Below are positions 5,044-58,370 of a DNA stretch of 64,000 nucleotides, piece after piece (the first letter of the stretch is position 1; each line of letters opens with the position of its first letter). Under the pieces are notes generated by a model. That model was not told where the DNA came from, made no database searches, and saw nothing but the letters and a program-made list of their open reading frames with translations. Source of the DNA: Lachnospiraceae bacterium (GTDB lineage: Bacteria > Bacillota > Clostridia > Lachnospirales > Lachnospiraceae). Made by a program: the position numbers and the translations under genes. Where the stretch lies: the NCBI GenBank assembly GCA_017621815.1, contig JAGASK010000029.1:124001-188000 (forward strand). Reading direction: 5' to 3'.

Positions 5044-5084
5044 TTCATGACAACATAAAAGCTCACGAAGCATATTTTCTATTG
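5044..5084 (+). repeat. TTCATGACAATAG-type palindromic element, copy 1
   Basis: A 41-nt imperfect palindrome that starts TTCATGACAACAT and ends TTTTCTATTG. It abuts the T-run of the preceding terminator. Compare the copies at 12012, 29159, 41773, 44267, 57632, 57671 and 58332. Confidence 0.65.
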
Positions 5085-5102
5085 CGCTTCTTCCATTATA
5101 TC

Positions 5103-5345
5103 TTATACAAAGCATCCCCGAAACGGATTCAATAAGCAACCTGCCAGTTTAAAACACAAAATGCCCGCCGGAATTAGAATCAATGTACAGCACAAGACCG
5201 CTCCAAATACCCCGCAGAGAATTGCGCAGGGCAGACAGAAAATCAGTTTTAATGCCAGCTTCAGCACTCCGCCTGCCAGCCTGAAACACAAAGAACATAT
5301 AAAACAGACAATGATTAAAACAATTATAGTAATTAAAGTAATCAT
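5103..5345 (-). CDS. Small hydrophobic membrane protein (80 aa)
   Basis: Almost entirely hydrophobic and Cys-rich, with about two or three membrane segments (start MITLITIIVLIIVCFICSLC). AGGAGTG precedes the ATG at 5345. It lies 12 bp after the DUF4097 gene and is the last gene of the PadR-DUF1700-DUF4097 operon. I do not recognise a family. Its position suggests a role in the same envelope-stress or membrane-sensing unit, which is inference. Confidence 0.7.
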   Translation of the reverse strand: MITLITIIVLIIVCFICSLCFRLAGGVLKLALKLIFCLPCAILCGVFGAVLCCTLILIPAGILCFKLAGCLLNPFRGCFV

Positions 5346-5357
5346 AATTTGTCACTC

Positions 5358-6332
5358 CTATTCCTGATTATCAAATGCAATTGTAATGTTTCCCATACTG
5401 CATTCTATGTCAAATTTACTTGCAGCGTTATTATTTATTGTTTTCTCCGATGCAAGCGCCGATACGGAAAAGCTTCCTATTTCAATATTACCCGCTCCGC
5501 ATTCGATTTCATAATTATGGTCTGTTTCGCTTCCGGTTAAGTGAAACTCCATATTCCCCATGCTGCATTCGGCATCAAGCTTTCCGGCAATGGTTCCTCC
5601 GTAAATGCATTCCCCTACTCCTACGCTGATTTCTGCATCCTTCGTCCTGATATTAGAAGCCTCCATTTGGCCCGCCCCCACTTCAACTGATAATTTTTCT
5701 ATATCCATATCATTTAAGTAAAGAACTGCGGCTCCGAGTTCTGCATCTAATTTATTCACTTTTATATTTGATATTTCCATCAGGCTTGCACCTGTCTCTA
5801 CATCCAGCTTGTCAAGACTGCTGCCTTTCGGAAAACTTATTCTAATCTCATTATTATCTGCAGCATTATTATAATCCGACCATTTCCATCCTTTAAAGCC
5901 TTCCACATGAAGTGTGCTTCCCTTTACATAGTCATTATAGCTGTCAATTCTTGTTCCGGATACCAATATATCAATCATGCCGTCATCCGTTCCTTTTTCT
6001 TCTATAATAAAGGTTCCCGCGCCAAGCTCCAGTTCCAGATTTCTGATTCCGTCCGCTTCTATTTGATGCGATGTTCCCGCCACAGTACTTGAATTTGAAC
6101 TTGAAGAAGTATGCTCATCTTTTAAATATCCCCATCTGCCGTCTGTAGAGTAATAAAAGCTTTTTCCCACCGCATCCACAAAGCTTTCGATTTTATCATC
6201 CAGTTCATCTTCTTCCCTTATAATCCTAAACACATTGCCGCCGCAGGCCAGCGCACTGACAGAGCCAAATACAAATCCTACGATTAAAAGAATTCCTGCT
6301 GTCATCAGACTTATTTTCACAAATTTTTTCAT
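5358..6332 (-). CDS. DUF4097 family beta-repeat envelope protein
   Basis: A 324-residue protein with one N-terminal membrane segment (ISLMTAGILLIVGFVFGSVS) and a long beta-strand-rich outside domain built of repeats such as LDAELGAAVLYLNDMDIEKL and LSVEVGAGQMEASNI. This is the DUF4097 adhesin-like beta-helix fold. Its ATG overlaps the stop of the DUF1700 gene by four bases. PadR-DUF1700-DUF4097 is a recurrent Firmicutes operon whose job is poorly understood, probably envelope-related sensing or scaffolding. The start has a good ribosome site inside the upstream gene. Confidence 0.88.
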   Translation of the reverse strand: MKKFVKISLMTAGILLIVGFVFGSVSALACGGNVFRIIREEDELDDKIESFVDAVGKSFYYSTDGRWGYLKDEHTSSSSNSSTVAGTSHQIEADGIRNLELELGAGTFIIEEKGTDDGMIDILVSGTRIDSYNDYVKGSTLHVEGFKGWKWSDYNNAADNNEIRISFPKGSSLDKLDVETGASLMEISNIKVNKLDAELGAAVLYLNDMDIEKLSVEVGAGQMEASNIRTKDAEISVGVGECIYGGTIAGKLDAECSMGNMEFHLTGSETDHNYEIECGAGNIEIGSFSVSALASEKTINNNAASKFDIECSMGNITIAFDNQE

Positions 6333-7135
6333 CCCTTTGCTCCTTTCTTTTTACCGAATATGCTGCTGAAGATATAGGCAATTCCCTGAATAATTCCGGG
6401 AATACACTTGCCTGCAATCAGGATTGTAACCAGCATGCATAAAATACCCACCGCTGCACAGATACAGCCTCCTCCTATCAGACCGATTCCCACAAAAGGC
6501 TTCACAATAATACATCCGAAACCGCCGATTACAAGGGAAACTGCTACAACAAAACATATTAACGCTGCCAATCCAAACCCCAGGACAACTCCCAGTACAG
6601 CAACAATAATTCCTGCCAGAATCCCCACCAATGCTCCTGCTGCGCCTATAATTGCCGGCGAAAAAACAATACAGGCAATCACAATCAGAACGATAGCCCA
6701 AGTCGGCAAATCCTTTTTCTCCTGTGTATCTTTTTCTGCAGCGCTTCCTTCATATAGAGTTTTATCCTGAGACCTTCTGGAACCTGTACTGTCATTTCCG
6801 TTTTCACTGTAATCAGCTCCGAAGCCGGATATATCCCTTTCACTGCCGTCCTTATCTGCCGTTCTTTTCATTACTTCATTTTTTGTTTCTTCAGCCGCCT
6901 TACTTGTAAATCCGTTTTCCGTAAATTCCCCCTGATTTTCATTTTCAGCAAGACCTTCCTTTACGATTTGGGCTACCTGCTGCGGAGAACCAAGAGCATC
7001 AATCACCTCTTTTTCATTCTCCTTTCCGGCATCATTAAAATAATCATTATAATATTGAAGGGCCTCTTCTCTCTCACTTGGTGAAATATCAGAAAGCAGC
7101 TCTTCAAGTCGTCTCATAAATTCCCATCTGCTCAT
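6329..7135 (-). CDS. DUF1700 domain membrane protein
   Basis: 268 residues. The first 75 form the DUF1700 helical domain: EFMRRLEELLSDISPSERE, then YYNDYFNDAGKENE and VIDALGSPQQVAQIVKEG. A charged low-complexity linker follows, then four hydrophobic segments rich in Gly/Ala/Val/Ile and a basic tail (FGKKKGAKG). It overlaps the PadR gene upstream and DUF4097 downstream by ATGA junctions, so the three proteins are made in a coupled way. No enzymatic motif is visible. Confidence 0.88.
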   Translation of the reverse strand: MSRWEFMRRLEELLSDISPSEREEALQYYNDYFNDAGKENEKEVIDALGSPQQVAQIVKEGLAENENQGEFTENGFTSKAAEETKNEVMKRTADKDGSERDISGFGADYSENGNDSTGSRRSQDKTLYEGSAAEKDTQEKKDLPTWAIVLIVIACIVFSPAIIGAAGALVGILAGIIVAVLGVVLGFGLAALICFVVAVSLVIGGFGCIIVKPFVGIGLIGGGCICAAVGILCMLVTILIAGKCIPGIIQGIAYIFSSIFGKKKGAKG

Positions 7136-7455
7136 TTTATCATTCCTCCCTCGAAAATACTGTTGATTTTAGCAGAATATTTTCTCCATTCACTTTCATA
7201 TAAGTTTAGCTGTAAACGTCCTTTTTCCGTTGCTTTATAATATCTCCTGTTTCTGCCCGCACATTCCATATCATAAACTTCAAGACACTCATCCTTCTGC
7301 AGACGCCTGAGCACGGGATAAAGTGTGGATTCCGAAAGTTCAATTACCTGCCTTACATCCTGAGTTATTTTGTATCCGTAAGCCCCCTCAGGCTCCCTGG
7401 ATACTACCGCTAACACAATCGCATCAAGAAGTGCTGCTCCTGTATTAAAAACCAT
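7132..7455 (-). CDS. PadR family transcriptional regulator
   Basis: 107 residues from the ATG at 7455, which has GGAGGAAAAG 5-8 bp upstream; an in-frame extension to 7503 has no ribosome site and runs into the promoter. Motifs VSREPEGAYGYKITQDVRQV, LSESTLYPVLRRLQKDECLE and RNRRYYKATEKGR are the winged helix of PadR proteins. It is the first gene of an operon with DUF1700, DUF4097 and a small membrane protein, which it probably represses. The ligand is unknown. Confidence 0.93.
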   Translation of the reverse strand: MVFNTGAALLDAIVLAVVSREPEGAYGYKITQDVRQVIELSESTLYPVLRRLQKDECLEVYDMECAGRNRRYYKATEKGRLQLNLYESEWRKYSAKINSIFEGGMIK

Positions 7456-7488
7456 CGCTTTTCCTCCTTTCTTGCATAAAATATATTT

Positions 7489-7559
7489 TATAATATTATA
7501 CATTATATAATATTAACTTTGATATAAATACTATATGACATATAATATTATTCTGTCAA
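7489..7559 (-). promoter_or_regulatory. PadR operon promoter with repeated TATAATATTA
   Basis: On the minus strand TTGACA (7554-7559) and TATAGT (7530-7535) are 18 bp apart. Three copies of TATAATATTA (from 7489, 7506 and 7541) flank and overlap the promoter and resemble the AT-rich dyads bound by PadR proteins. Confidence 0.6.
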
Positions 7560-7585
7560 TGTGTTTTGAAAAAATATATAAAAAA

Positions 7586-7620
7586 GACTGTTATAAAATA
7601 TTTAACGTTTCATAACAGTC
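7586..7620 (-). terminator. Terminator after the CmpB-like gene
   Basis: GACTGTTAT pairs with ATAACAGTC (9-bp stem); on the minus strand it is followed by a T-run (complement of 7578-7585). Confidence 0.75.
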
Positions 7621-7665
7621 TCTTTCTTCAACCTCACATTATTTACTTTTTTCCGGTCTTTCCGC

Positions 7666-8994
7666 CTATTCATTTACAATTTTAGCATTCGGATAAATTC
7701 TTTCCATTCTTTCATCCGGAAAATGACTGTCCAGAAATTCATCCAGACTGCCGGTCATCTCCGTACCCACTTCTTCTGTTCCCGCAGTATTCCTCTCCGT
7801 ATATCTTGCAAGGGCAAGAGAAGAAATGATGCAGTTAAAAATCATAAACACAATTGCTGCATTACAAATAATCGTACCTGCCTTTACCGGCAGCTTTTCA
7901 ATCCATGCAGCAAAACGGGGATATAAAAACTTCATCCACACAACTGCTGCAATTCCCCAGAAGAAACAGTATAACAGATTAATCCTTCCCCCTAAATTAA
8001 ACATAAAGCCGCTGTAATCCCAAAAAACTGTTCCAAATACAAGTTCGGTAAAAACGCTGCATACATATTCATAGGCTCCTCCAAGCAGTGTACCTGCCGC
8101 AAAAATATAAGAATCGCTTTTATCCTTAATTCTGTATAAAATAGCAGTAAGAAGGCTGCAACCAAGTCCCCAGACAATACTGAAGGGACCGTAAACCACA
8201 CTGCTGCGGCTCATCAACACTCCGGTGGTAACCAGGCAGAATATTGTTTCTGTAATATCCCCCAGAAAAGCTCCTATGAAAAACAGGCTCACCAGCTTAT
8301 AAAAACTGCATCCTTTAGCAAAAACAGTCTTTTCCTTCTTTTTTAAAACTGCCTGCCTTTCCTCCAAAGCAGGAAAAGCTTTTTCCATACGTCTTGTAAT
8401 TCTTTTTGTAATTGCATTTTCCAGCAGTTTTGAAACCTGCCCTATACCTTCAGACCATTCCGAAACCTGAACTGCCTTTTTCTGCATGCCGAGAATTGTC
8501 AGTGAAGTTCCCAATATATCTACCAGAAGCAGTCCCGAAAGAATCCAAAGCAATATATTCCCCAAAAGGCGGGGAATCAAATGAATTACCGTACCCAGAA
8601 ACGGATTTACAAAAAGAATAAGCAGCACTGCAAACACACCCCACAAAAGAGAATATTGCAGGCAGATATATCCTTCAAAATTAAACTTAAGTCCTGAATA
8701 ATCCCACCATTTTTTCCGAAAAAGCTTCTCCAAAAACACGCCCGTAAAAAATTCTGTAAGGGAGGCAAGAATCACGCCTCCCAAAAACAGGAAAAAGATG
8801 TTTTCACGAAGTTCGGGCAGAAAAACAGCAAAAATCACCGCACCAATACCATAAACCGGGCAAAACGGACTATTCACTACTCCCCGGTTTATAAACTTCT
8901 TTCTTGCAAATGCCGCCACACATACTTCCCCGCACCAGCCCGCAAAGGAATACACAAAAAAGAACCATAGAAGCTCATAAAATGAATATGTCAT
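7666..8994 (-). CDS. Duplicated CmpB-like (PF06541) membrane protein, putative ABC transporter permease
   Basis: 442 residues, strongly hydrophobic, with two copies of one module. The first holds YSFAGWCGEVCVAAF, INRGVVNSPFCPVYGIGAVI and WWDYSGLKFNFEG; the second repeats them as GAFLGDITETIF, SSVVYGPFSIVWGLG and FWDYSGFMFNLGG (about residues 230-370). This is the putative ABC-transporter type IV family (ABC_trans_CmpB). No ATPase gene is adjacent, so the transport role is only a family label. It is a single-gene unit with its own terminator. Confidence 0.8.
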   Translation of the reverse strand: MTYSFYELLWFFFVYSFAGWCGEVCVAAFARKKFINRGVVNSPFCPVYGIGAVIFAVFLPELRENIFFLFLGGVILASLTEFFTGVFLEKLFRKKWWDYSGLKFNFEGYICLQYSLLWGVFAVLLILFVNPFLGTVIHLIPRLLGNILLWILSGLLLVDILGTSLTILGMQKKAVQVSEWSEGIGQVSKLLENAITKRITRRMEKAFPALEERQAVLKKKEKTVFAKGCSFYKLVSLFFIGAFLGDITETIFCLVTTGVLMSRSSVVYGPFSIVWGLGCSLLTAILYRIKDKSDSYIFAAGTLLGGAYEYVCSVFTELVFGTVFWDYSGFMFNLGGRINLLYCFFWGIAAVVWMKFLYPRFAAWIEKLPVKAGTIICNAAIVFMIFNCIISSLALARYTERNTAGTEEVGTEMTGSLDEFLDSHFPDERMERIYPNAKIVNE

Positions 8995-9032
8995 AAAAGC
9001 TGCTCTCCTCTTTTGTAAAAGATATTATCGTG

Positions 9033-9518
9033 TCACATTTTTCTTTCATATATTCTGAATGATACTATATAGCTTAACATAAAGCACATCAGAATGAACA
9101 GAAGCATTTTTACCAAAATGGGATAAAAAATTCCTCCTATCATGCTGACAGCCAGAGTTGCAATCAGCATGACCCCGAATGCCGACTTTAAAGCATGATT
9201 GCTGATTTCAGAAAGCCTTTCGTCGGAATTTTCCAGGCGGCTCTCCTTTAATTTCTTCTCATCCTTCAAAAGCATCAGATTCCTCACCATCAAAATCACC
9301 CCGGCTACTGCAATGCCTGTTCCGGCTCCTGCATAAACTCCCAGCATATATTCCGGCAAAGCGGCAACGCCTTTTGCATCAGCAATGAAAGCTGCAGCTG
9401 CAATCACAATTCCCACAATAATCAGAACTGCCATATACTTGTTTCTGCCTTTCACTATTTTCCTGTATTCTTCATTAGTAGCTGCCGTAGTTCCGCAAAA
9501 AATTCCTTTTATCTTCAT
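9033..9518 (-). CDS. Four-helix membrane protein paired with an XRE regulator
   Basis: 161 residues with hydrophobic segments at about 28-47, 57-77, 112-130 and 134-152 and a charged central loop. The ATG overlaps the end of the XRE gene by ATGA. Small helix-turn-helix regulators followed by such membrane proteins are frequent in Firmicutes; the membrane partner probably modulates the regulator or is its regulated target. No named family is certain. Confidence 0.75.
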   Translation of the reverse strand: MKIKGIFCGTTAATNEEYRKIVKGRNKYMAVLIIVGIVIAAAAFIADAKGVAALPEYMLGVYAGAGTGIAVAGVILMVRNLMLLKDEKKLKESRLENSDERLSEISNHALKSAFGVMLIATLAVSMIGGIFYPILVKMLLFILMCFMLSYIVSFRIYERKM

Positions 9519-9724
9519 AAGTTTTCATCCTCCCTGTCAAATAAGAACATTTCTTCAATTGTCACTCCGAAAAACTGGGCTATTTTATGGGCAAGCACAA
9601 GGGACGCTTTGTATTTCCCGTTTTCAAGGGAAATAATCGTCTGTCTCGTCACATTTACCGCATCAGCAAGTTCTTCCTGAGTAATCTTTCTTTCCTTTCT
9701 GTATTCAGTTATTCTGGTCTTCAT
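9515..9724 (-). CDS. XRE family helix-turn-helix regulator (69 aa)
   Basis: A compact single-domain regulator: KTRITEYRKERKITQEELAD, then VNVTRQTIISLENGKYKASL and LAHKIAQFFGVTIEEMFLF, the five-helix Cro/CI fold. It is the first gene of a two-gene unit with a membrane protein. Direct repeats in its promoter (9743-9785) are probable self-binding sites. Confidence 0.92.
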   Translation of the reverse strand: MKTRITEYRKERKITQEELADAVNVTRQTIISLENGKYKASLVLAHKIAQFFGVTIEEMFLFDREDENL

Positions 9725-9742
9725 AAAACCATCCTTTCAATA

Positions 9743-9810
9743 AGTATAGCATGCTTTACATTTTGAGTATAGTTTGCTTTACATTATTTGTCAAGTAAAC
9801 TTTACATTTT
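9743..9810 (-). promoter_or_regulatory. XRE operon promoter with 20-bp direct repeats
   Basis: Minus-strand TTGACA (9789-9794) and TATACT (9766-9771) are 17 bp apart. Two 20-bp direct repeats, AGTATAGNNTGCTTTACATT, lie at 9743-9762 and 9766-9785, and a shorter copy AACTTTACATTTT at 9798-9810. One copy fills the promoter spacer and one lies over the start point, as expected for autoregulation. Confidence 0.7.
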
Positions 9811-9822
9811 AGTTTATTTTTT

Positions 9823-9834
9823 TATTGTCATGAA
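9823..9834 (-). repeat. TATTGTCATGAA half-element, copy 2
   Basis: Only the conserved end of the palindromic element family is present (minus strand TTCATGACAATA). It directly follows the T-run of the terminator at 9840-9860. Confidence 0.5.
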
Positions 9835-9839
9835 AAAAA

Positions 9840-9860
9840 GACAGCCCTTAACGGACTGCC
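9840..9860 (-). terminator. Terminator of the GH13/inositol phosphatase operon
   Basis: On the minus strand GGCAGTCC pairs with GGGCTGTC, with two G-U pairs, followed by seven T and then the TTCATGACAATA half-element. Confidence 0.7.
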
Positions 9861-9870
9861 TTAAAAACAA

Positions 9871-10662
9871 CTATGCCTTTTGTATCTCCTGCCAGACTTT
9901 TATGGTCTTTTCATTTCCTGCCACTACACCGTTCTTTTCATCAAAGGTAATTTCTTTTCCTTCCGTATTAACAATCCTTCCTCCCGCTTCCGTCAGAATT
10001 AAGGAACCGGCAGCATAATCCCAGGGGCTGAGGAGCAGTTCAAAATAAAGCTCCGCCCTTCCGCATGCAACATTGCACAGGTCAATAGCCGCCGAACCGC
10101 TCCGCCGCACGTCAAGGCTTCTTATAAAAAGCTCATAGGCACATTGAAAAGAACGTTTTGACAGTTCTTCATTATAAGGCGCCGTACCAAAGAGCACCAA
10201 CCCTTCACTTAAGTCATGGTCAGAAACATGAATTGCTTTTCCGTTGCAATAAGCCCCTTTTCCCTTTTCTGCACGAAACAACTCATCCAGATAAGGATTA
10301 TATACGATTCCCAACACAGGTTTTCCTGCCTGTAAAAGTCCTACGGAAATGCAGCTTACACAATAACCCTTCATAAAATTGGTGGTACCGTCAATAGGGT
10401 CTATGATAAAAGCATAGCCCTCAGGCAAAGCGGCATGTTCTTCCTCTTCTTCACCGATAAACACAGCGTCGGGCAGTATCTTCATCAACTTCTGAAACAA
10501 AAAATCCTGCACCCTTTTATCATAGGCTGTTACAAAATTAGCCCTGCCGCTTTTTTCTTCCACCGTTTCCTCAACACGAACCGCATTTATAAGAATCCTT
10601 CCCGCTTCTTTCACAACAGCTTCTATTTTTTCTGCCAATTCGCTTAAACAGCAATCTGCCAT
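9871..10662 (-). CDS. Inositol monophosphatase family protein
   Basis: 263 residues with the full metal-binding signature of the family: IGEEEEEH (first Glu), IDPIDGTTNFMKG, and PWDYAAGSLILTEAGGRIV near the C-terminus. Members dephosphorylate inositol monophosphate, fructose-1,6-bisphosphate, NADP or 3'-phosphoadenosine-5'-phosphate; the substrate cannot be fixed from motifs. It is 3 bp downstream of a GH13 enzyme and surely co-transcribed, so a sugar-phosphate substrate is possible (inference). Confidence 0.88.
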   Translation of the reverse strand: MADCCLSELAEKIEAVVKEAGRILINAVRVEETVEEKSGRANFVTAYDKRVQDFLFQKLMKILPDAVFIGEEEEEHAALPEGYAFIIDPIDGTTNFMKGYCVSCISVGLLQAGKPVLGIVYNPYLDELFRAEKGKGAYCNGKAIHVSDHDLSEGLVLFGTAPYNEELSKRSFQCAYELFIRSLDVRRSGSAAIDLCNVACGRAELYFELLLSPWDYAAGSLILTEAGGRIVNTEGKEITFDEKNGVVAGNEKTIKVWQEIQKA

Positions 10663-10665
10663 ATC

Positions 10666-11976: not shown

Positions 11977-12011
11977 ATTATGTTTCCTCCTAATCTGCAT
12001 CTGCTGCCAGA

Positions 12012-12050
12012 CAATAAAATTATATTTCATAAGCTTTCTATTGTCATGAA
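12012..12050 (-). repeat. TTCATGACAATAG-type palindromic element, copy 3
   Basis: 39 nt; minus strand begins TTCATGACAATAGAAAGC and ends TATTG. The middle is AT-rich and poorly paired. It lies in the leader of the GH13 gene. Confidence 0.55.
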
Positions 12051-21748: not shown

Positions 21749-21771
21749 ACTGTTTACCTCCTTTTATATTT

Positions 21772-21783
21772 TATTGTCATGAA
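21772..21783 (-). repeat. TATTGTCATGAA half-element, copy 4
   Basis: Minus strand TTCATGACAATA directly after the T-run of the hairpin at 21788-21834, in the same setting as the copy at 9823. Confidence 0.5.
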
Positions 21784-21893: not shown

Positions 21894-22120
21894 GCATCTA
21901 TAACATAATGTAATCCTGAAAGTTTGTTAAGCATATTGTAAGGCAGATACCCAGCAGTCAGCCTGCTGATTTTGCGGACAGACACTACAATAGAAAATTC
22001 ACTCCACGAATTTCCTATTTACAGGAATAAAAAGCCTTTCCGCAAATTATTTAGTTTACACTAATTGCCATTACGATAACGCCTGACAAACAATCACCTC
22101 GCTTTTCAAAATTATGCATT
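21894..22120 (-). other. Possible decayed holin-like type I toxin locus
   Basis: The minus strand near 22100 reads GCGAGGTGATTGTTTGTCAG followed by GCGTTATCG, close to the start region of small holin-like toxin genes of Firmicutes (GAGGTGATT, then an ALSLM-coding stretch). A stop codon follows at once and no frame of useful length remains. The GCGTG/CACGC terminator at the other end also fits such loci. The identification rests on remembered similarity and is weak. Confidence 0.3.
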
Positions 22121-22146: not shown

Positions 22147-23135
22147 TCAATTACTTTTATTCAGATACTTTGCAGCCTGTTCTTTTGAAAGCTGATACTG
22201 TTCCACAATCTCATCCAGAATTTTCTCATCCGGCAGGCCGGATTTTTTCATTCCGGATACCGTATTGCGGATACTGTTTTCAATAATTGCCTGCATCTGA
22301 ATTATTGTATCATTTTGCTTGTCTATGGTATACTTCTGCTCGTCTATGGTGTCCTTCTGTTCGTCTATGGTGTCCTTCTGTTCGTCTATGGTGTCCTGCA
22401 TCTCATCAATCATATATTGTACTGTGTTCTTATCCAGTTCATATAATTCTCTTGAAAACATTGCCATCACCTCTTCCATATTGCAGCAGATATCATAAGC
22501 TTCCTCATAAATCTTCTTAAACTCCGGATACTGCTCTATCAATTTTATAATCGTATCCAAATCATCCACTATAAACAGAGTAAGCCATGCATCCATTTTA
22601 TTGGTTATTATTTCTTTATTGTGCTGAATTTCCTTGAATATGTCAAGGGGTATGAACAGGTATTTCTGCAAAAGTTCCATATGTAATCCTGTATCAGATT
22701 TTTGTTCAAAATAATGATAATAAGAATCGGGAAACTCATGAAAACTTTTCGGGCTATTTTCTGCACTTCCACATTGGCTATACTGCCGTCTTCCAGTTCT
22801 ACTACTATATCCATAATAACCAAAGAGCTTTCATCTGCTATTCTGCCTGAATCTGCTGGCAGCACTGTCAATACCTTTACTTTTTTTCTTAAAGCCTGAG
22901 AGAGAAAATCATTGAGCCGTTCCGGACTGTGTTCAGGATTCATGATTTCTTTAAAGAATCCGTCATATAACAGTTTGATTCCGCGAACTCCTGTACAAAA
23001 ATTCAAAAAATCTTCCTGCCGTTCTTTGCTCCAGCTTTCAAACTGCTCCTCCAGTTCCTTCCGGCTCCTGATTTCATCAAGAATATCCTTTCGTTCCCGT
23101 ATCATGGGAAAATACTTCTTCAGCTTACTTGCCAT
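22147..23135 (-). pseudogene. PD-(D/E)XK nuclease family transposase (Rpn-like), internally deleted
   Basis: The first part (from 23135) gives MASKLKKYFPMIRERKDILD through ADESSLVIMDIVVELEDGSI and NVEVQKI, the nuclease core. At about 22755 the frame is wrong: another frame continues with SPKSFHEFPDSYYHYFEQKS, the normal C-terminal part, which runs on to LLQKYLFIPLDIF. Roughly 45 family residues (the LFPGER...RQYKRV region) are missing, so a deletion that is not a multiple of three has removed part of the core. The C-terminal part still has four heptads DTIDEQK encoded by 21-bp repeats (about 22310-22395). The element is inactive. Confidence 0.8.
22310..22395 (-). repeat. 21-bp tandem repeat encoding DTIDEQK heptads
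   Basis: About four copies of a 21-bp unit (plus strand TTCGTCTATGGTGTCCTTCTG with minor changes) inside the transposase remnant. They encode a seven-residue repeat suited to a coiled coil. Copy number in such repeats varies by slippage. Confidence 0.8.
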
Positions 23136-29158: not shown

Positions 29159-29198
29159 TTCATCACAGCCGAAAACCCGCAAAGCGTGCTTTCTATTT
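29159..29198 (+). repeat. Palindromic element, degenerate copy 5
   Basis: 40 nt: TTCATCACAGCC then GAAAACCCGCAAAGCG and TGCTTTCTATTT. The length and positions of the CGC/GCG and CTTTCTATT parts match the family, but TTCATGA is mutated. It lies just after a terminator, like copies 1, 2, 4, 6 and 9. Confidence 0.45.
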
Positions 29199-40141: not shown

Positions 40142-40215
40142 TCTCCCATTTGACATTCTTTTCACTGCAGGGTAACATAATTACAGTTATATCCAAATAC
40201 AAGAGGAGTTATTAC

Positions 40216-41772: not shown

Positions 41773-41812
41773 CAATAGAAAGTGCGCCTACCGAACCTTC
41801 TATTGTCATGAA
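41773..41812 (-). repeat. TTCATGACAATAG-type palindromic element, copy 6
   Basis: 40 nt with well-paired ends: minus strand TTCATGACAATAGAAGG to CTTTCTATTG. It lies between the convergent ABC-F and glgP genes, next to the glgP terminator. Confidence 0.7.
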
Positions 41813-44266: not shown

Positions 44267-44306
44267 TTCATGACAACAGAAAGTTCGCAGGGCGCGCTTT
44301 CTGTTG
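44267..44306 (+). repeat. TTCATGACAATAG-type palindromic element, copy 7
   Basis: 40 nt: TTCATGACAACAGAAAG, centre TTCGCAGGGCGCG, then CTTTCTGTTG; 9-bp arms. It lies in the glgP leader, without a neighbouring terminator. Confidence 0.7.
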
Positions 44307-52765: not shown

Positions 52766-52807
52766 AAAACGCAAATCCTTTCCGTTTTTAGCGTAACAAA
52801 AAAAGAG

Positions 52808-52914
52808 AAATCAGAAATCCCTGATTTTTCTTTTTCTAAACTGCATATAATGTTTATATTATATACAATTAAATATACGCATAATTATTATACAGCTGAT
52901 ATATAACTTTGCAA
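52808..52914 (-). promoter_or_regulatory. MATE gene promoter and attenuator-like leader
   Basis: Minus-strand TTGCAA (52909-52914) and TATAAT (52887-52892), 16 bp apart, should start a transcript that meets a terminator before the gene: AAATCAG/CTGATTT (52808-52827) followed by CTCTTTTTTTG. A short frame ATGCAGTTTAGA...TGA (52811-52846, 11 codons) ends inside that hairpin but has no clear ribosome site. Confidence 0.5.
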
Positions 52915-53009
52915 GCATTTTTTTAAGCACTTTTCCCTGTAAAAACCTGAAGGGAAAACTTTTGGAAAATTCGCTGGAAAATTCCTTTTGAAAAATTTTC
53001 AATTTTTTG

Positions 53010-53038
53010 TTGACAGAATTCTCCACATCAAATATAAT
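53010..53038 (+). promoter_or_regulatory. tRNA cluster promoter
   Basis: TTGACA and TATAAT, both perfect consensus, spaced exactly 17 bp, 42 bp before tRNA-Pro. Confidence 0.85.
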
Positions 53039-53079
53039 ATATCTTGCGTTGTGTGAGTGTCAACAAGGAAAGAGACCAG

Positions 53080-53154
53080 CGGGGTGTGGCTCAGCTTGGC
53101 TAGAGCGCCTGGTTTGGGACCAGGAGGTCGCAGGTTCGAATCCTGTCACCCCGA
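53080..53154 (+). tRNA. tRNA-Pro (UGG)
   Basis: Acceptor CGGGGTG/CACCCCG, anticodon loop TTTGGGA (TGG), T-loop TTCGAATC. First of six tRNAs in one transcript. Confidence 0.95.
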
Positions 53155-53179
53155 TTTAATAACAACGCAGTTTGATTCT

Positions 53180-53250
53180 GCGGGTGTAGTTCAATGGTAG
53201 AACACCAGCCTTCCAAGCTGGATACGTGGGTTCGATTCCCATCACCCGCT
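53180..53250 (+). tRNA. tRNA-Gly (UCC)
   Basis: Acceptor GCGGGTG/CACCCGC, anticodon loop CTTCCAA (TCC), T-loop TTCGATTC; 71 nt. Confidence 0.95.
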
Positions 53251-53274
53251 TTGTACTTGATTTCAGGTGCATGT

Positions 53275-53348
<74 letters not shown>

Positions 53349-53398
53349 CTTTGAGATATGGATAAAGTCAATTGGCTGTTATGTACTATCTCTCATAT

Positions 53399-53473
53399 GG
53401 TGGGTATGGCGCAGTTGGCTAGCGCGCCAGATTGTGGCTCTGGAGGCCGAGGGTTCGAGTCCCTCTATCCACC
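53399..53473 (+). tRNA. tRNA-His (GUG)
   Basis: Acceptor GTGGGTA/TATCCAC with the extra G at position -1 opposite C73, a His identity element. Anticodon loop TTGTGGC (GTG). Confidence 0.94.
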
Positions 53474-53481
53474 CTTTACCA

Positions 53482-53501
53482 AGCTTGCCTTTGGGCAAGC
53501 T
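53482..53501 (+). other. Hairpin between tRNA-His and tRNA-Gln
   Basis: AGCTTGCC pairs with GGCAAGCT around a 4-nt loop. No T-run follows, so it is more likely an RNA-processing feature than a terminator. Confidence 0.4.
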
Positions 53502-53530
53502 ATTGTTCCAGGGATGAGCTTGGTGTATAT

Positions 53531-53602
53531 TGGGCTATCGCCAAGCGGTAAGGCACAGGACTTTGACTCCTGCATTCGCTGGTTCGAATCCAGCTAGCCC
53601 AG
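53531..53602 (+). tRNA. tRNA-Gln (UUG)
   Basis: Acceptor TGGGCTA/TAGCCCA, anticodon loop CTTTGAC (TTG), T-loop TTCGAATC. Confidence 0.95.
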
Positions 53603-53623
53603 TTTTGTTTTATAATTATATAT

Positions 53624-53696
53624 GGGCTACTAGCTCAGGTGGTAGAGCACTTGACTTTTAATCAAGTTGTCCCGGGTTCGAGTCCCGGGTGGCTCA
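53624..53696 (+). tRNA. tRNA-Lys (UUU)
   Basis: Acceptor GGGCTAC/GTGGCTC with two wobble pairs, anticodon loop CTTTTAA (TTT), T-loop TTCGAGTC. Last tRNA before the terminator. Confidence 0.94.
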
Positions 53697-53698
53697 TT

Positions 53699-53736
53699 AA
53701 AAAAAGTTGTTAAGCATTTTGTTTAACAACTTTTTT
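53699..53736. terminator. Bidirectional terminator between the tRNAs and the phosphoesterase gene
   Basis: GTTGTTAA pairs with TTAACAAC, flanked by A-run and T-run on both sides, serving the tRNA transcript (plus) and the operon ending at 53749 (minus). Confidence 0.85.
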
Positions 53737-53748
53737 GTTAGTATTCTT

Positions 53749-54228
53749 TCAGAGATAATTAATTGTGAAATGGGCATCCCCGTTTTTATCCAAATCCATG
53801 ATTATATATGAAGGTTTTTTCCCTTCCTGTCTCGGATATGTAAGGCTTCCCGGATTAATTGCTATAATATCACTTTCAATATCTATCACAGGCCTGTGTG
53901 AATGTCCGTACATCACAATATCCACGCCTCTTTCCCGTGCTTCTCTCTTTATATTTTCATTGCTCATAGATACATAATATGTATGTCCATGAGTCAGCCA
54001 TACTTTATATTTACCTATGTTAAACTCTTTTTCTCTTGGCAAATCAGAAAAAAAGTCATTATTTCCCATTACCATCTGTACAGGGCATCCGGCACATTCC
54101 GCAATCAGATATTCACTGCCTTCAATATCACCGCAGTGAATAACCATATCAACGGGTGCAACTCTTTCAATTACCCGAATGTAATTATCATTATGATGAT
54201 GTGTGTCACTGACAATCAATACTTTCAT
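53749..54228 (-). CDS. YfcE/MJ0936 family metallophosphoesterase
   Basis: 159 residues with all calcineurin-like motifs: MKVLIVSDTHHHNDN (D-x-H), VIHCGDIEG (GD), VMGNNDF (GNxD), WLTHGH and MYGHSHRPV. Such short enzymes are metal-dependent phosphodiesterases of unsettled substrate. It is the last gene of an operon and starts 30 bp after the XTP pyrophosphatase. Confidence 0.92.
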   Translation of the reverse strand: MKVLIVSDTHHHNDNYIRVIERVAPVDMVIHCGDIEGSEYLIAECAGCPVQMVMGNNDFFSDLPREKEFNIGKYKVWLTHGHTYYVSMSNENIKREARERGVDIVMYGHSHRPVIDIESDIIAINPGSLTYPRQEGKKPSYIIMDLDKNGDAHFTINYL

Positions 54229-54258
54229 ACTTTATCCCCAACTTCGCATATAAGTATC

Positions 54259-54870
54259 TTATATGTTCTCCTCAAGTCTTTTTCTGATAGCACGCAGTGC
54301 TTTTCCTCTATGGCTGATTTCATTCTTTTCATCTTCTGATAATTCTGCTGTGGTTTTCCCATAGTCCGGGACATAAAAAATCGGGTCATAGCCAAAACCG
54401 TTGTCTCCGCGTTCTTCATATCCGATTCTTCCTTCTATGGTACCTGTTTCGGTAATGATATTTCCGCCGGGAAGCGCCGCCGCTATGGCACAGACAAAAC
54501 GAGCCGTTCTTTTCTCATCCTCCACACCGTTTAATCTTTCTATCAGATTGGCATTCTTTATGCGATAAGAAGTATCCTCTCCCATATACCTTGCAGAATA
54601 AATTCCGGGCTCCCCATTCAAATAATCAATTTCAAGTCCTGAATCATCAGCAAGAACAATCGCATCCTCAACTTTCAATGAAACTGCCCTGGCCTTAATC
54701 ACGGCATTTTCCGCAAAGCTTTTACCATTCTCAACAATATCCGCATTGATACCGGCTTCTTTCATTGAAAGAATCTCTGTTTCTTCTCCGCCTATCTTCA
54801 TATTTTCAAGTATTTTTCGTATTTCACGCATTTTACCCTGATTTCCGGTTGCAAAAATAATTCTGCGCAT
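54259..54870 (-). CDS. rdgB: XTP/dITP diphosphatase (Ham1/RdgB family)
   Basis: 203 residues: IIFATGNQGKMREIRKIL at the N-terminus, IVLADDSGLEIDYLNGEPGI, SARYMG, and the NGFGYDPIFYVPDYGKT nucleotide-binding segment, then SHRGKALRAI. It removes non-canonical purine triphosphates (XTP, ITP, dITP) from the nucleotide pool. It follows the amidase-like gene by 21 bp. Confidence 0.95.
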   Translation of the reverse strand: MRRIIFATGNQGKMREIRKILENMKIGGEETEILSMKEAGINADIVENGKSFAENAVIKARAVSLKVEDAIVLADDSGLEIDYLNGEPGIYSARYMGEDTSYRIKNANLIERLNGVEDEKRTARFVCAIAAALPGGNIITETGTIEGRIGYEERGDNGFGYDPIFYVPDYGKTTAELSEDEKNEISHRGKALRAIRKRLEENI

Positions 54871-54891
54871 AAATTATCCTCTTTCGATTAC

Positions 54892-55947
54892 TTATTGAAT
54901 TTCCTCATATACCTTTATAATGGCATTATAAATTCCCGTTGCAATCTTATCTATGTATTCTTCCCTGCTCAGTAAGGCAGCCTCCTGTTTATTGGTAATA
55001 TAACCCACATTGACTGCTGCAGCCGGTATGACGGACTGTCGAAGGGTATATTCTTCCTTCTCTGCCTCTACAAGTCCGACAGCCTTACCCTTAATGGCAG
55101 TTACCACTTCCCTCTCCAGGCAGTCCGCCAATTCTACATTACCGAATCCCGGAATAAAATAATCACCATTATAAACAGCGCTCGTCCCATATACCGAAGA
55201 ATCTTCGGACGCACTCAACTGAATACGGATATACATATCTGCTCTTGTTTCGTTACCAAGCGCCGTCCTGTCTTCTTTTGAAGGATTCACATCATCCATT
55301 CTGGTATAGTATGCTTTAATGTCGCTTCCATCCAGCTTTTCCTTCAATTTTCTGGCAATCTGCAGGTTTATATCCTTTTCCAGAATATTTTCTGCCGTAT
55401 ATCCCAAATCACTGCCTCCGCATGCCGGGTCAATTACTACAATTTTGTCATACATCTCAGCAGGCGCCAAAAAACTGATATAAAGATTTTCGTTTTCTAA
55501 AATAGTACGGCATTCATAAATTCCTGTCAACTGAAAATTAAGGGCAATTCCCTCTTTTGTCACTTCAAAAGAGCCCTGTCTGACTGATTCCCTGTTTCCT
55601 GAAATAACATTTTCTTCATAAAAATCTTCGTCAGCATTTGGTATCAAAATCCACAAAGCTCTGTCCATATAATGATTTTCAATAATAATATCATCAGCCT
55701 TGCATCCTTCAGGCAGCGGTATCCTCAAATAGCTTGTATCAGCTTCGCCCAGTTTAAAGGTAAGGTTCTTTACTGCTCCGTCTCCGGCAGTATTTTCCTT
55801 TACTGCCAGGTTTTCCATCACCTCATCCTGAGCCACATCAGCAATAGTGATTACTTTATTTGCTGACATCCCAAAAATCATTCCCATAGCTGCAAGAAAA
55901 AATACAAGACTGCAGACCGCCGTTTTTTTCATCAATGTCTGATTCAT
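54892..55947 (-). CDS. Amidase_3 domain protein lacking zinc ligands (probable inactive N-acetylmuramoyl-L-alanine amidase)
   Basis: 351 residues from the ATG at 55947 (GAGGTG just upstream). A membrane anchor (VCSLVFFLAAMGMIFGM), a region of unknown fold (about 45-165), then an amidase_3 domain (about 170-345). The zinc site is lost: the usual DPGHGG reads VVIDPACGGSDLG (His to Cys), the second His (SIHxN-type) reads IRIQLSAS, and the late catalytic Glu (VEVGF-type) reads AVNVGYITN. Only the middle Glu (ILEKDINLQIA) remains. It may bind peptidoglycan or regulate another amidase. It begins 2 bp after the methyltransferase stop. Confidence 0.82.
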   Translation of the reverse strand: MNQTLMKKTAVCSLVFFLAAMGMIFGMSANKVITIADVAQDEVMENLAVKENTAGDGAVKNLTFKLGEADTSYLRIPLPEGCKADDIIIENHYMDRALWILIPNADEDFYEENVISGNRESVRQGSFEVTKEGIALNFQLTGIYECRTILENENLYISFLAPAEMYDKIVVIDPACGGSDLGYTAENILEKDINLQIARKLKEKLDGSDIKAYYTRMDDVNPSKEDRTALGNETRADMYIRIQLSASEDSSVYGTSAVYNGDYFIPGFGNVELADCLEREVVTAIKGKAVGLVEAEKEEYTLRQSVIPAAAVNVGYITNKQEAALLSREEYIDKIATGIYNAIIKVYEEIQ

Positions 55948-55949
55948 AA

Positions 55950-57095
55950 TCACCTCTGCTTCGGCGGTTTAGGCCCCGGAAATTGATAAAAATACGTTTT
56001 CATCATCCCATTATATATTTTTCTGTTTTTAGCCGCCTTCATTTTCATTGATTCTTCTGCCTGTTCATAAGCAGTAATTAAATACATGGACCATGAATCC
56101 AGAGTTCTGAACCTTTCCCCTATTGTTCTGTAAAGTGAAGGAAGATTTTTCTTTTCCTCTATCCTTTCTCCGTAAGGCGGATTCGTTATAATAAAACCAT
56201 ATTTTTTACTATGGCTGAGTGCCGAAACATCTCTTCTCTGGAAATGAATCAGAGAATCCACCCCTGCAAGCCTTGCATTTTCTCTGGCAATGTCCACCAT
56301 CTTTTCATCAATGTCATAACCCTGAATATCTGTATCCACATTCAGATTTACCATTTCCCTGGCCTCATCTACAGCATGATACCATTCCTTTGAAGGCACC
56401 AGGTGCTGCCATTTTTCAGCCGTAAATTCCCTGTTCATTCCGGGAGCAATTCCGGCTGCCATCAGTGCCGCTTCAATGGGAAATGTTCCGCTTCCGCAAA
56501 AAGGGTCAACTAAAATCCTGTCCCCCTTCCAGGGTGTCAGCATAATCAGTGAAGCCGCCAGATTTTCCGCAATGGGCGCTTTTGCCGTCAGCTTACGATA
56601 TCCTCTTTTATGTAGAGATTCCCCTGTGGTATCAAGAGCTGCCGTAACCTCATCTTTCATCAGGAACACGCGAATCGGAAAAGGCTCGCCGTCTTCCGTA
56701 AACCAGTTCACCTTATAAATTTCCTTCAAACGCTCCACCATGGCTTTTTTCATCACAGACTGAATATCAGAAGGACTGAAGAGCTTACTCTTTACACTTG
56801 CCGCCTTAGTTACCCAGAATTTTCCATCAACCGGAACAAATTCTTCTAAGGGAAGAGCCTTCGTCCCCTGAAACAGTTCCTCATAGGTTTCCGCATGAAA
56901 GCTTCCTATTTTAATCAGAATCCTCTCTGCCGAACGCAGGAATACATTAGCACGGCAAATTGCTTCTTCATCACCAATAAAGGTAATCCTGCCATCTTCT
57001 ACCTTTGATACATCATATCCCAAATCTGTTATTTCTCTTTTCAACACTGCTTCCAGTCCAAAATGACATGGCGCAATCAATTCGTATCTTTTCAT
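55950..57095 (-). CDS. THUMP-domain class I SAM-dependent RNA methyltransferase (RlmL/YpsC-like)
   Basis: 381 residues. N-terminal THUMP RNA-binding domain (about 1-155: PCHFGLEAVLKREITDLGYD) and a Rossmann methyltransferase domain with DPFCGSGTFPIEAALMA, VNLNVDTDIQGYDIDEKMVD and the active-site IITNPPYGERIEEKK. It is annotated in B. subtilis as YpsC and in enterics as the N-terminal half of RlmL, which methylates 23S rRNA at a guanine N2. It heads an operon with the amidase-like, XTP pyrophosphatase and phosphoesterase genes. Confidence 0.92.
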   Translation of the reverse strand: MKRYELIAPCHFGLEAVLKREITDLGYDVSKVEDGRITFIGDEEAICRANVFLRSAERILIKIGSFHAETYEELFQGTKALPLEEFVPVDGKFWVTKAASVKSKLFSPSDIQSVMKKAMVERLKEIYKVNWFTEDGEPFPIRVFLMKDEVTAALDTTGESLHKRGYRKLTAKAPIAENLAASLIMLTPWKGDRILVDPFCGSGTFPIEAALMAAGIAPGMNREFTAEKWQHLVPSKEWYHAVDEAREMVNLNVDTDIQGYDIDEKMVDIARENARLAGVDSLIHFQRRDVSALSHSKKYGFIITNPPYGERIEEKKNLPSLYRTIGERFRTLDSWSMYLITAYEQAEESMKMKAAKNRKIYNGMMKTYFYQFPGPKPPKQR

Positions 57096-57179
57096 TTCAA
57101 TTTACCCTATAGTTTCAGTTTTTCATGCATTTAGAGTTAGTATAACACACTTTTTCTACTTTTGTATACGTCATACGTC

Positions 57180-57206
57180 AAAAAGGGATGCCGAAGCATC
57201 CCTTTT
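57180..57206 (-). terminator. Terminator of the Asn-rich protein gene
   Basis: AAAAGGGATGC pairs with GCATCCCTTTT around CGAA; A and T runs on both sides. Confidence 0.85.
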
Positions 57207-57228
57207 CTCTGTGACAAAATTGACTGAC

Positions 57229-57375
57229 TTAAAACTCGTTATTCTTCTTATTGCTGTTTGAGCTGTTGTTAGAAGAACTGTTTTTCTGGCTGTTCTTGCA
57301 TTCCTGATTATTCTTGTTCTCCTGATTTTTGTTGTCACAATTCTGATTGTTCTGATTATAATCGTTCTTAGACAT
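57229..57375 (-). CDS. 48-residue Asn/Gln-rich protein
   Basis: The ATG at 57375 has AGGAGG 9 bp upstream and the frame closes at TAA 57229, just before a terminator. The composition is extreme: about 21 Asn, with Gln, Lys and Ser and hardly any hydrophobic residues, beginning MSKNDYNQNNQNCDNKNQEN and ending KKNNEF, with two Cys. It must be disordered and soluble. I do not recognise a family; short hydrophilic Asn-rich proteins of clostridia are sometimes spore- or stress-related. Two GGTAC dyads lie in the promoter region. Confidence 0.75.
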   Translation of the reverse strand: MSKNDYNQNNQNCDNKNQENKNNQECKNSQKNSSSNNSSNSNKKNNEF

Positions 57376-57450
57376 ATTTCATTCCTCCTGATTCTTTAGG
57401 TTACAGGAGTAGTATTTTCTTTTTTATAAGCATTTATTCAAGACTTGCAT

Positions 57451-57527
57451 GGTACTTTAGTACCTGTTTTTTATTTATTTTGCACAATTTTCTTCAAAAT
57501 ATCGACCGGTACTTTTGTACTATTATA
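57451..57527 (-). promoter_or_regulatory. Promoter region of the Asn-rich gene with two GGTAC dyads
   Basis: GGTACTTTAGTACC (57451-57464) and GGTACTTTTGTACT (57508-57521) share the motif GTAC-N4-GTAC and are 57 bp apart. The second directly follows TATAAT (57522-57527, minus strand), where the start point should be; the -35 element is weak. Confidence 0.6.
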
Positions 57528-57631
57528 TCATTGCTTTTTATTTGTCCCTACGCTATAATATAAACGTAAACAGGAAACCCCTTCATATTCCTATTTACAA
57601 CCCTTATATTAATTATTTATACTCCCCAAAT

Positions 57632-57670
57632 AACAGAAAATTCGCAAAGCGGATTTTCTGTTATCATGAA
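57632..57670 (-). repeat. TTCATGACAATAG-type palindromic element, copy 8
   Basis: 39 nt; minus strand TTCATGATAACAGAAAATCC, then GCTTTGCGAATTTTCTGTT. Directly abuts copy 9, giving a tandem pair. Confidence 0.75.
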
Positions 57671-57709
57671 CAATAGAATGGCGCTTTGCGGATTTTCTAT
57701 TGTCATGAA
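57671..57709 (-). repeat. TTCATGACAATAG-type palindromic element, copy 9
   Basis: 39 nt; minus strand TTCATGACAATAGAAAATCC, then GCAAAGCGCCATTCTATTG. Follows the terminator at 57711-57740. Confidence 0.75.
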
Positions 57710-57710
57710 T

Positions 57711-57740
57711 AAAGCCTGTCAGCCCCCCTGACAGGCTTTA
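57711..57740 (-). terminator. Terminator of the gene at 57748-58134
   Basis: AAAGCCTGTCA pairs with TGACAGGCTTT; on the minus strand TTTATTCATGAC follows, entering element copy 9. Confidence 0.8.
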
Positions 57741-57747
57741 TACTTTT

Positions 57748-58134
57748 TTACAATTTATCTTCTCCACGACCTTCTTCCAGTCTTCTTACATACTCATCAG
57801 GATGCCGCTGCATATCAATCATAGTTCTGAATGCTCGCATTACCATTCTCTCTTTATTACATGTCCGCGGATTCTTTCCAATCTCCCGGACGAGATTATA
57901 TTTATCCATCTGCCAGACATATATATCCGACAGGGAATAACCTCTTACTTTTATCTTATCCATAAAAGTATGATGCTCGATATAATAAACAAGCTCCTCA
58001 TAAATATCTCTGCAGGTTATAATATCTGTCCACAGCTTATCTGTCCATTCTTTATCAAATTCCGCATATTCACAGATGTCATAAAAGCCCTGACATACTT
58101 TTATTCTCGATGCATCATATAAAATTCCCTGCAT
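57748..58134 (-). CDS. Hypothetical protein (128 aa)
   Basis: AAAGGAT lies upstream of the ATG at 58134 and a terminator follows the stop, so the gene is probably real. The protein is soluble and mostly helical, rich in acidic and aromatic residues (FYDICEYAEFDKEWTDKLWT, then SLSDIYVWQMDKYNLVREIG). The C-terminal RMVMRAFRTMIDMQRHPDEY is basic. I do not recognise a family. It lies between two sets of palindromic repeats. Confidence 0.65.
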   Translation of the reverse strand: MQGILYDASRIKVCQGFYDICEYAEFDKEWTDKLWTDIITCRDIYEELVYYIEHHTFMDKIKVRGYSLSDIYVWQMDKYNLVREIGKNPRTCNKERMVMRAFRTMIDMQRHPDEYVRRLEEGRGEDKL

Positions 58135-58151
58135 AATAAATTATCCTTTCC

Positions 58152-58255
58152 CACCAAACGGCCTAAAGGCCTTATTGGACAAACGGTCTGACGACCTTAT
58201 TGGACAAACGGCCTAAGGGCCTTATTGGACAAACGGCCTGACGACCTTATTGGAG
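58152..58255. repeat. Four 25-bp palindromic tandem repeats
   Basis: Units start GGACAAACGG and end CCTTATT with no spacers. Units 1 and 3 have GGCCTAARGGCC, units 2 and 4 GGYCTGACGACC, so the array alternates A-B-A-B with a 50-bp higher period. Each unit is itself a short dyad. It lies upstream of the gene at 57748-58134. Confidence 0.8.
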
Positions 58256-58272
58256 TAAATGGAATATAAAAA

Positions 58273-58305
58273 GTGTTCCGCACTATGTATTATAGTACGG
58301 AACAC
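58273..58305 (-). terminator. Terminator of the sugar ABC transporter operon
   Basis: GTGTTCCG...TACTATA pairs with TATAGTG...CGGAACAC; on the minus strand TTTTTATATT follows. Confidence 0.75.
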
Positions 58306-58331
58306 CCTTAAAATTCAACTATTCAATTATA

Positions 58332-58370
58332 CAATAGAAAGTACTCTGTATAAACTTCCTATACTATGAA
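58332..58370 (-). repeat. Palindromic element, degenerate copy 10
   Basis: 39 nt; minus strand TTCATAGTATAGGAAG ... CTTTCTATTG. It sits between the solute-binding protein stop codon and the operon terminator. Confidence 0.45.

What the first reader, a model, noticed from the sequence alone, without database searches (positions are those of the whole stretch)
5044..58370. Interspersed palindromic element family ending in TTCATGACAATAG, preferring sites right after terminators
About ten intergenic copies occur: 5044, 9823, 12012, 21772, 29159, 41773, 44267, 57632, 57671 and 58332. Complete copies are 39-41 nt with the layout TTCATGACAATAGAAAG-centre-CTTTCTATTG. The arms vary together (CAATAG/CTATTG versus CAACAG/CTGTTG), which suggests selection for pairing. 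Two copies are in direct tandem at 57632-57709. Six copies begin immediately after the T-run of a Rho-independent terminator (5042, 9840, 21788, 29150, 41820, 57711), and the TTCATGA end always faces it. None lies in a coding sequence. This is not an IS or a known REP/BOX that I can name. It could be a non-autonomous mobile element using terminators as insertion sites, or a 3'-end RNA signal.
Basis: seen in the sequence. Interest (0 to 1): 0.78.

Follow-up and report, generated by a model that had tools for sequence, protein, structure and literature searches.

The report
Mobile hairpin inserted after gene terminators
A 40-letter hairpin of DNA has copied itself about a hundred times or more through this gut-type bacterium's genome, about half the time landing within a few letters of the signal that ends a gene, and none of the copying enzymes that were searched for accounts for it.

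Summary
The window has seven of the ten reported copies as hairpins, two as 3'-truncated half-copies, one (58332) weak, plus one unreported (21988-22027). Genome-wide, TTCATGACAAYAG occurs 43 times against 0 for the reversed control; 115 copies were collected by looser criteria, perhaps a few by chance. The unit is 40 nt: an unpaired tag TTCATGA, then a hairpin with a conserved mismatch. Lineages carry different stems that keep pairing (46 double changes against 11.8 shuffled). A strong terminator-like hairpin ends 0-12 nt before the tag in 55 of 115 copies (62 of 114 in other genomes), against 2 and 8 when the point moves 13 nt, and 7 and 5 at the other end. Module-free copies of a host repeat show insertion between A and T without a clear target duplication. 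Distribution is patchy. Y1 (IS200/RAYT), Y2, Rep_trans and reverse-transcriptase families are each missing from several carrier genomes. Best reading: a REP-like, non-autonomous element, probably of single-strand type, with a new tag, inserted 3' of hairpins by an enzyme not identified. Its sequence was not found in the open papers searched. A new variant of a known kind.

The parts
5044..5084 (+). copy, full hairpin, directly 3' of a terminator
9822..9834 (-). copy, 3'-truncated (tag and first stem bases), directly 3' of a terminator on the - strand
12012..12050 (-). copy, degenerate 3' half; tag end preceded by ...CAGACTGA
21771..21783 (-). copy, 3'-truncated, directly 3' of a terminator on the - strand
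   Evidence: 24.6 bits, E 0.001;
29159..29198 (+). degenerate copy, directly 3' of a terminator
   Evidence: 22.3 bits
41773..41812 (-). full copy between convergent genes, directly 3' of the terminator of the phosphorylase gene; 7 of 7 relatives' orthologous gaps lack it
   Evidence: 55.5 bits
41820..41853 (-). terminator hairpin and T-run next to the copy at 41773-41812 (bounds read by eye)
   Evidence: sequence
44267..44306 (+). full copy without an adjacent terminator, 5' of the phosphorylase gene; 13 of 13 relatives' orthologous gaps lack it
   Evidence: 63 bits
57671..57709 (-). first unit of a head-to-tail pair, next to the terminator
57631..57670 (-). second unit of the pair, with the centre of the hairpin flipped
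57712..57740 (-). terminator hairpin next to the tandem pair (bounds read by eye)
   Evidence: sequence
58334..58370 (-). degenerate copy starting at the stop codon of the ORF 58371-59939
   Evidence: 18.1 bits, E 0.03

Best explanation
A family of miniature, protein-less mobile elements of the REP type. The unit is 40 nt: an unpaired tag (TTCATGA) and a hairpin whose conserved mismatch (T.G / T.T near the loop) makes the two strands unequal. Inferred mechanism: an enzyme supplied in trans recognises the tag and the folded single strand, and joins the unit into single-stranded or hairpin-extruded DNA between A and T of a 5'-TnTnA^T site, preferably the T-run just 3' of a DNA hairpin. Terminators would be the commonest such sites in a low-GC genome. 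Shown: unit length, tag, stem covariation, sharp one-sided position next to hairpins, A|T flanks, filled against empty sites in a host repeat, arrays of about 40-nt units, lineage-specific subfamilies, patchy spread. Inferred: single-strand chemistry and the existence of the enzyme, which was not found.
For: Copy number far above control (43 against 0). All 104 selected 40-nt copies carry TTCATGACAA, but the tag was used to select them; the independent sign is that subfamilies with different stems keep it: CAATAG/CTATTG, TAATAG/CTATTA, GAATG/CATTC, GAATCC/GGATTC. Covariation: 46 cells changed on both sides against 11.8 (sd 2.8), 0 of 500 shuffles. Terminator-like hairpin at the tag end: 55/115 own and 62/114 named copies; other end 7/115 and 5/114; 300 nt upstream 2/114 and 1/104; 300 nt downstream 3/113 and 4/109; random 11/230 and 11/228; shuffled 3/115 and 2/114. 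Without copies that may follow another unit, whose own hairpin can be called, 44/94 and 57/105. Moved 13 nt upstream: 2/115 and 8/114. Fisher p 3e-13 and 6e-18 against the other end. Flanks A|T in 53 of 88 and 75 of 94 full-length non-tandem copies; the -5, -3 and -1 preferences are similar with and without a terminator. Empty sites: a host repeat without the module reads (hairpin)...A|TTTGGCGACTGC in 3 genomes, against ...CA|[31 nt]|TATGGCGAC in 8 of 9 G002 copies and TATGGCGAA in the ninth; a second host repeat agrees roughly. Orthologous gaps of relatives lack the copy: 0 of 7 and 0 of 13. Of the 43 own copies compared, flanks matched each other only in three pairs of overlapping neighbouring loci. 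Patchy: 22 of 250 genomes of the family have TTCATGACAAYAGAA, only 4 have 3 or more.
Against: No mobilising enzyme was identified. About half of the copies have no terminator next to them by my own, uncalibrated caller. Leading/lagging strand bias, expected for single-strand transposition, is weak: 78 of 115 own and 74 of 114 named copies on the locally G-rich strand, but 35 of 53 and 23 of 44 for copies without a terminator. The empty sites come from different genomes with base differences at the junction (the related repeat in G000, L273, reads TTCACTCGG there), and a duplication of one or two T cannot be excluded. Neighbouring units in arrays resemble each other more than random pairs (33.7 against 23.3 of 40 identical; the list counts some arrays on both strands and the random set includes loose matches), so arrays partly arise by local duplication. 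Some copies spread as passengers of larger repeats.
Confidence: 0.66

Rival explanations
1. An ordinary REP family moved by an IS200/IS605-type Y1 transposase (RAYT) that was lost, or fell into unassembled parts.
For: Layout (unpaired tag plus imperfect hairpin, lineage subfamilies, intergenic positions) is that of REPs. The window's genome is a draft, 91.6% complete. Y1 genes occur in 13 of the 21 genomes, most of which hold copies, and in 14 of 36. HuH subclass 1.1 is reported well represented in Clostridia (PMC6006769, one passage seen).
Against: PF01797 finds nothing in G000, G002 (97% complete) and G030 (97%), nor in G062, G064, G067, G075, G076, G077, all of which hold at least one copy. 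Of the 15 largest protein clusters near copies that were shown, none looks like a transposase. The tag is not GTAG or CGTC (PMC3733652, abstract and passages seen).
Confidence: 0.14
2. A functional 3'-end signal (RNA processing, transcript protection, or a protein site) kept by selection beside terminators.
For: Sharp position next to terminators; stems kept by compensatory change; the tag strand folds better as RNA than its complement (-16.5 against -13.6 kcal/mol).
Against: Absent from orthologous gaps of relatives (0/7, 0/13) and from most genera sampled. About half of the copies are not beside a terminator. G.U-type and A.C-type mismatches are about equal outside pair 18-30 (63 against 78, by subtraction), so no RNA strand is favoured there. 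Transcription that stops at the terminator would not reach the element (inference).
Confidence: 0.08
3. A retroelement by-product of group IIC introns or another reverse transcriptase, which also land just 3' of terminators.
For: Group IIC introns insert immediately after Rho-independent terminators (PMC8919778, passages seen). Of the copies found by the 5' motif 11 of 43 lack a good 3' arm, while 2 of 24 found by the 3' arm lack the tag. RVT_1 genes are present in G000, G030, G002, G060 and G067.
Against: No RVT_1 match in G061, G062 and G064, each with three or more copies listed. 40 nt cannot be a group II intron. The truncation asymmetry is weak and may reflect later deletion of the hairpin.
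Confidence: 0.05
4. Spread mainly as a passenger of larger interspersed repeats rather than by movement of its own.
For: 9 of the 12 G002 copies fetched lie in one ~95-bp repeat; similar embedding in L068/L099/L122/L138 and in L197/L202/L207 of G030.
Against: In the window's genome, flanks of the 43 copies compared matched each other only where neighbouring loci overlap, and upstream hairpins differ from copy to copy.
Confidence: 0.04

Closest known systems
REP elements (GTAG- and CGTC-tagged palindromes; REPtrons with RAYT)
   Same: 20-40 bp palindrome with an unpaired motif at one end, many copies, predominantly downstream of genes, some families species-specific. CGTC-tagged REPs are also reported to lack a dedicated transposase (PMC3733652, abstract and passages).
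   Different: Tag TTCATGA; insertion right after hairpins at A^T; found here mainly in Lachnospiraceae and related Clostridia (titles); no Y1 transposase found in nine carriers.
Group IIC (bacterial class C) introns
   Same: Insertion immediately 3' of terminators (PMC8919778, passages); no target duplication (recalled).
   Different: No room for a ribozyme in 40 nt; no reverse transcriptase found in three carrier genomes.
IS200/IS605 family derivatives and PATEs (recalled)
   Same: Hairpin recognised as single strand, no target duplication, insertion 3' of a short target.
   Different: One hairpin instead of two ends; no Y1_Tnp found in nine carriers.
Helitrons / IS91 (recalled)
   Same: Helitrons insert between A and T without duplication; hairpin near the 3' end.
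   Different: 40 nt; Y2_Tnp not found in six carriers.

Membership tests
REP (GTAG/CGTC) | short palindrome of 20-40 nt with an unpaired motif at one end, in many copies | tested here: met
REP (GTAG/CGTC) | tag fits GTAG or CGTC | tested here: not met
   tag is TTCATGA in the subfamilies seen; copies were mostly found by that tag
REP/RAYT | RAYT (Y1_Tnp) gene in the genome, flanked by the repeat | tested here: not met
   PF01797 not found in G000, G002, G030 and six further carriers; several of these are incomplete drafts; carriers with Y1 were not checked for flanking copies
Group IIC intron | insertion directly after terminators | tested here: met
   (about half of the copies)
Group IIC intron | ribozyme and reverse transcriptase | tested here: not met
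   length 40 nt; no Rfam intron in the window at gathering score; no RVT_1 in G061, G062, G064, though present in G000, G002, G030
Classical MITE of a DDE transposase | terminal inverted repeats at both ends and target-site duplication | tested here: not met
   ends are unequal, tag at one end only; no clear duplication at the filled/empty site, 1-2 nt of T not excluded
IS91/Helitron-like | Y2 transposase | tested here: not met
   PF04986 not found in carriers G000, G002, G062, G063, G064, G066; found in carriers G030 (partial), G060, G061, G065
Rolling-circle Rep/relaxase-moved element | shared Rep_trans gene | tested here: not met
   PF02486 only in G000 and G030 of 13 genomes searched, 10 of them carriers; other Rep and relaxase families not tested
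Integron attC | folded site with integron integrase | not tested
   no whole-genome search left

The most novel reading that the evidence does not exclude
A single-strand mobile element system distinct from the known ones: an enzyme outside the Y1, Y2, Rep_trans and reverse-transcriptase families recognises the TTCATGA tag and hairpin, and uses extruded terminator hairpins as docking sites, inserting 40 nt bluntly at A^T.
Probability: 0.28. Interest if true: 0.82.

Novelty: new variant of a known kind. Interest (0 to 1): 0.62.

Why it matters
Tagged REP palindromes are reported mostly from Proteobacteria, many with the Y1 enzyme RAYT (PMC3733652, abstract). Here is a clostridial counterpart with its own tag, a precise target (the 3' side of terminator hairpins, A^T) and no enzyme of the tested families in several carriers, so how such hairpins move becomes testable in culturable gut bacteria. 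It also marks terminators as safe landing sites, as for group IIC introns, and would need masking in terminator and small-RNA annotation of Lachnospiraceae.

Tried and rejected
RAYT/Y1, Y2, Rep_trans and reverse transcriptase as shared mobiliser: each is missing from several carriers, though each is present in some. A transposase next to copies: the 15 largest of the protein clusters within 1.5 kb of copies (those shown) are led by ABC transporters and sensor kinases, none read as a transposase, named from recall of the sequences; the largest ORFs beside 18 chosen copies without one arm likewise. Insertion exactly at stop codons: only 2 of 115 own and 2 of 114 named copies directly follow the stop of an ORF of 100 or more codons. 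RNA-strand test by G.U against A.C mismatches: no preference outside pair 18-30. Replication-strand bias: weak. Rfam: no family fits the element in the loci and window searched. Plasmids: no match. Phages: 25 records matched, the 20 listed all from human faecal samples; the 8 fetched are from Mexico and the one whose ORFs I read looks bacterial. First terminator caller was too strict (23 of 115 and 28 of 114) and was replaced. Aligned gaps of relatives at sites A and B were too diverged to give exact empty sites.
Full report
What was checked. The window is G000:C17:124001-188000, from a draft genome of 3.50 Mb in 52 contigs, 91.55% complete.

Anatomy. From 104 full 40-nt copies, chosen by the tag, the consensus is TTCATGACAATAGAAAGTTCGCAAAGCGTGCTTTCTATTG. 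Positions 1-7 are unpaired and 8-40 form a hairpin with a conserved T.G/T.T irregularity below the loop; as single-stranded DNA a consensus copy folds at -11.1 kcal/mol, z -5.4. Lineages have different stems: the window's genome has the consensus and a TAATAG/CTATTA form; copies of G030 and G002 a GAATCC/GGATTC form; a faecal bacterium filed as phage a GAATG/CATTC form; G002 also a 31-nt short form. On 100 distinct copies (alignment A2, picked by me from 169 candidates chosen on tag and loosely on both arms) 91.7% of cells pair against 88.5 shuffled; 46 cells are changed on both sides against 11.8 (sd 2.8), 0 of 500; 8 pairs have a change on both sides against 5.6, 29 of 500. The selection on both arms favours pairing. 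Some copies have the hairpin centre inverted (L015, L038, window 57631).

Numbers and spread. Own genome: 43 exact TTCATGACAAYAG, control 0; 137 model matches at E<=0.01 (only 150 candidates scored, some hairpins on both strands); 115 copies by looser criteria from fetched stretches, which were themselves picked by tag or model. At least one of the 115 (L022, minus strand, 627) is a probable chance match. Same genus by model: G030 43, G002 24, G028 4, G003 3, G008 0, G019 0. Over the family, genomes of 250 genera: 22 of 250 have TTCATGACAAYAGAA, 4 have 3 or more (38, 8, 6, 3); the reversed control gives one hit in each of 7, so some single matches are chance. One 31-nt copy in a viral contig lies 46 nt from an ORF that matches phage tape-measure families.

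Position. A hairpin of -8 kcal/mol or better followed by at least 4 T in 7 ends 0-12 nt before the tag in 55 of 115 own and 62 of 114 named copies; at the other end, on the other strand, in 7 and 5; 300 nt upstream in 2 of 114 and 1 of 104; 300 nt downstream in 3 of 113 and 4 of 109; at random points in 11 of 230 and 11 of 228. For a copy that follows another unit the caller can pick up that unit's hairpin: leaving out 21 own and 9 named copies that a loose test flags, 44 of 94 and 57 of 105 remain. Moving the point 13 nt upstream gives 2 of 115 and 8 of 114. If copies merely survived better downstream of genes, the distance would be broad, so this sharpness speaks for targeting. The caller is my own and uncalibrated; the comparisons, not the absolute rate, carry the argument. 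Across copies the flanks read T(-5) N T(-3) N A(-1) | T W T.

Insertion. The G002 ~95-bp repeat exists without the module in A. muris (L066), Blautia parvula (L176) and G030 (L202)...A|TTTGGCGACTGC against ...A|[31 nt]|TATGGCGAC. A related repeat in G000 (L273) also lacks it but differs at the junction. The module thus went in just after a short hairpin, between A and T, with no clear duplication; a shift of one or two T cannot be resolved. A second repeat (L367/L369 against L368/L364) agrees with base differences at the junction. Two sites of the window are empty in all relatives compared: 0 of 7 and 0 of 13 by alignment, and the model finds nothing above 12.3 bits in those 20 stretches. Units in arrays repeat at 39-41 nt, often exactly 40; several share private changes, so local duplication adds to insertion.

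Enzyme. PF01797 was not found in nine carriers, PF04986 in six of ten carriers, RVT_1 in three of eight carriers, PF02486 in eight of ten carriers. Each family is present in other carriers. Draft assemblies lose repeats, so absence is strong only in combination.

Known kinds. The closest are the GTAG/CGTC-tagged REPs (PMC3733652: abstract and passages seen), of which the CGTC class is also reported without a dedicated transposase, and group IIC introns for the landing site (PMC8919778: passages seen). It works like a REP but fails the tag and RAYT tests, so it is not filed as a member. A search for five of its sequence words in 5.39 million open papers gave 0; word searches on terminators and repeats listed nothing on point in titles and abstract starts. 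Most subscription papers are not in that library.

Noticed in passing
L274-L282 (G002), L066:1540-1600, L176, L202:716-770, L273: A separate interspersed repeat, TTATTCCCGCGAGCAACGAGCC...(hairpin)...GGCGACTGCCGCGAGG, occurs in several genomes with and without the 31-nt module inside.
   Followed up: partly
L207:1400-1640 (G030) against window 40142-40204: A ~220-bp repeat with ends like AACAGTTCAG/CTGAACTGTT, carrying the 40-nt element, sits in G030 where the window's genome is empty.
   Followed up: partly
L068, L099, L122, L138: A ~250-bp repeat with long inverted arms that contains the 40-nt element at the same place in all four copies.
   Followed up: partly
MT836618.1 (L364) and related records: Records filed as 'UNVERIFIED: Bacteriophage sp.' from human faeces may be bacterial: L364 has ORFs that read as DNA polymerase I, a PTS enzyme I and glucosamine-6-phosphate deaminase (named from recall of the translations, not by a search).
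   Followed up: partly
window 58155-58254: Tandem 25-bp units CAAACGGCCTAAAGGCCTTATTGGA between two ORFs.
   Followed up: no
window 22303-22407: 21-bp repeat units inside an ORF on the minus strand.
   Followed up: no
window 1-64000: Strong GC skew of one sign (-0.13 to -0.25 in 8-kb steps), so the minus strand is probably the leading strand here.
   Followed up: no
L155:60-250: A ~170-nt insert with inverted ends (GTTACTTTTCACGGG...CGTGAATAGTAAC) seems to split one copy of the element in its loop.
   Followed up: no
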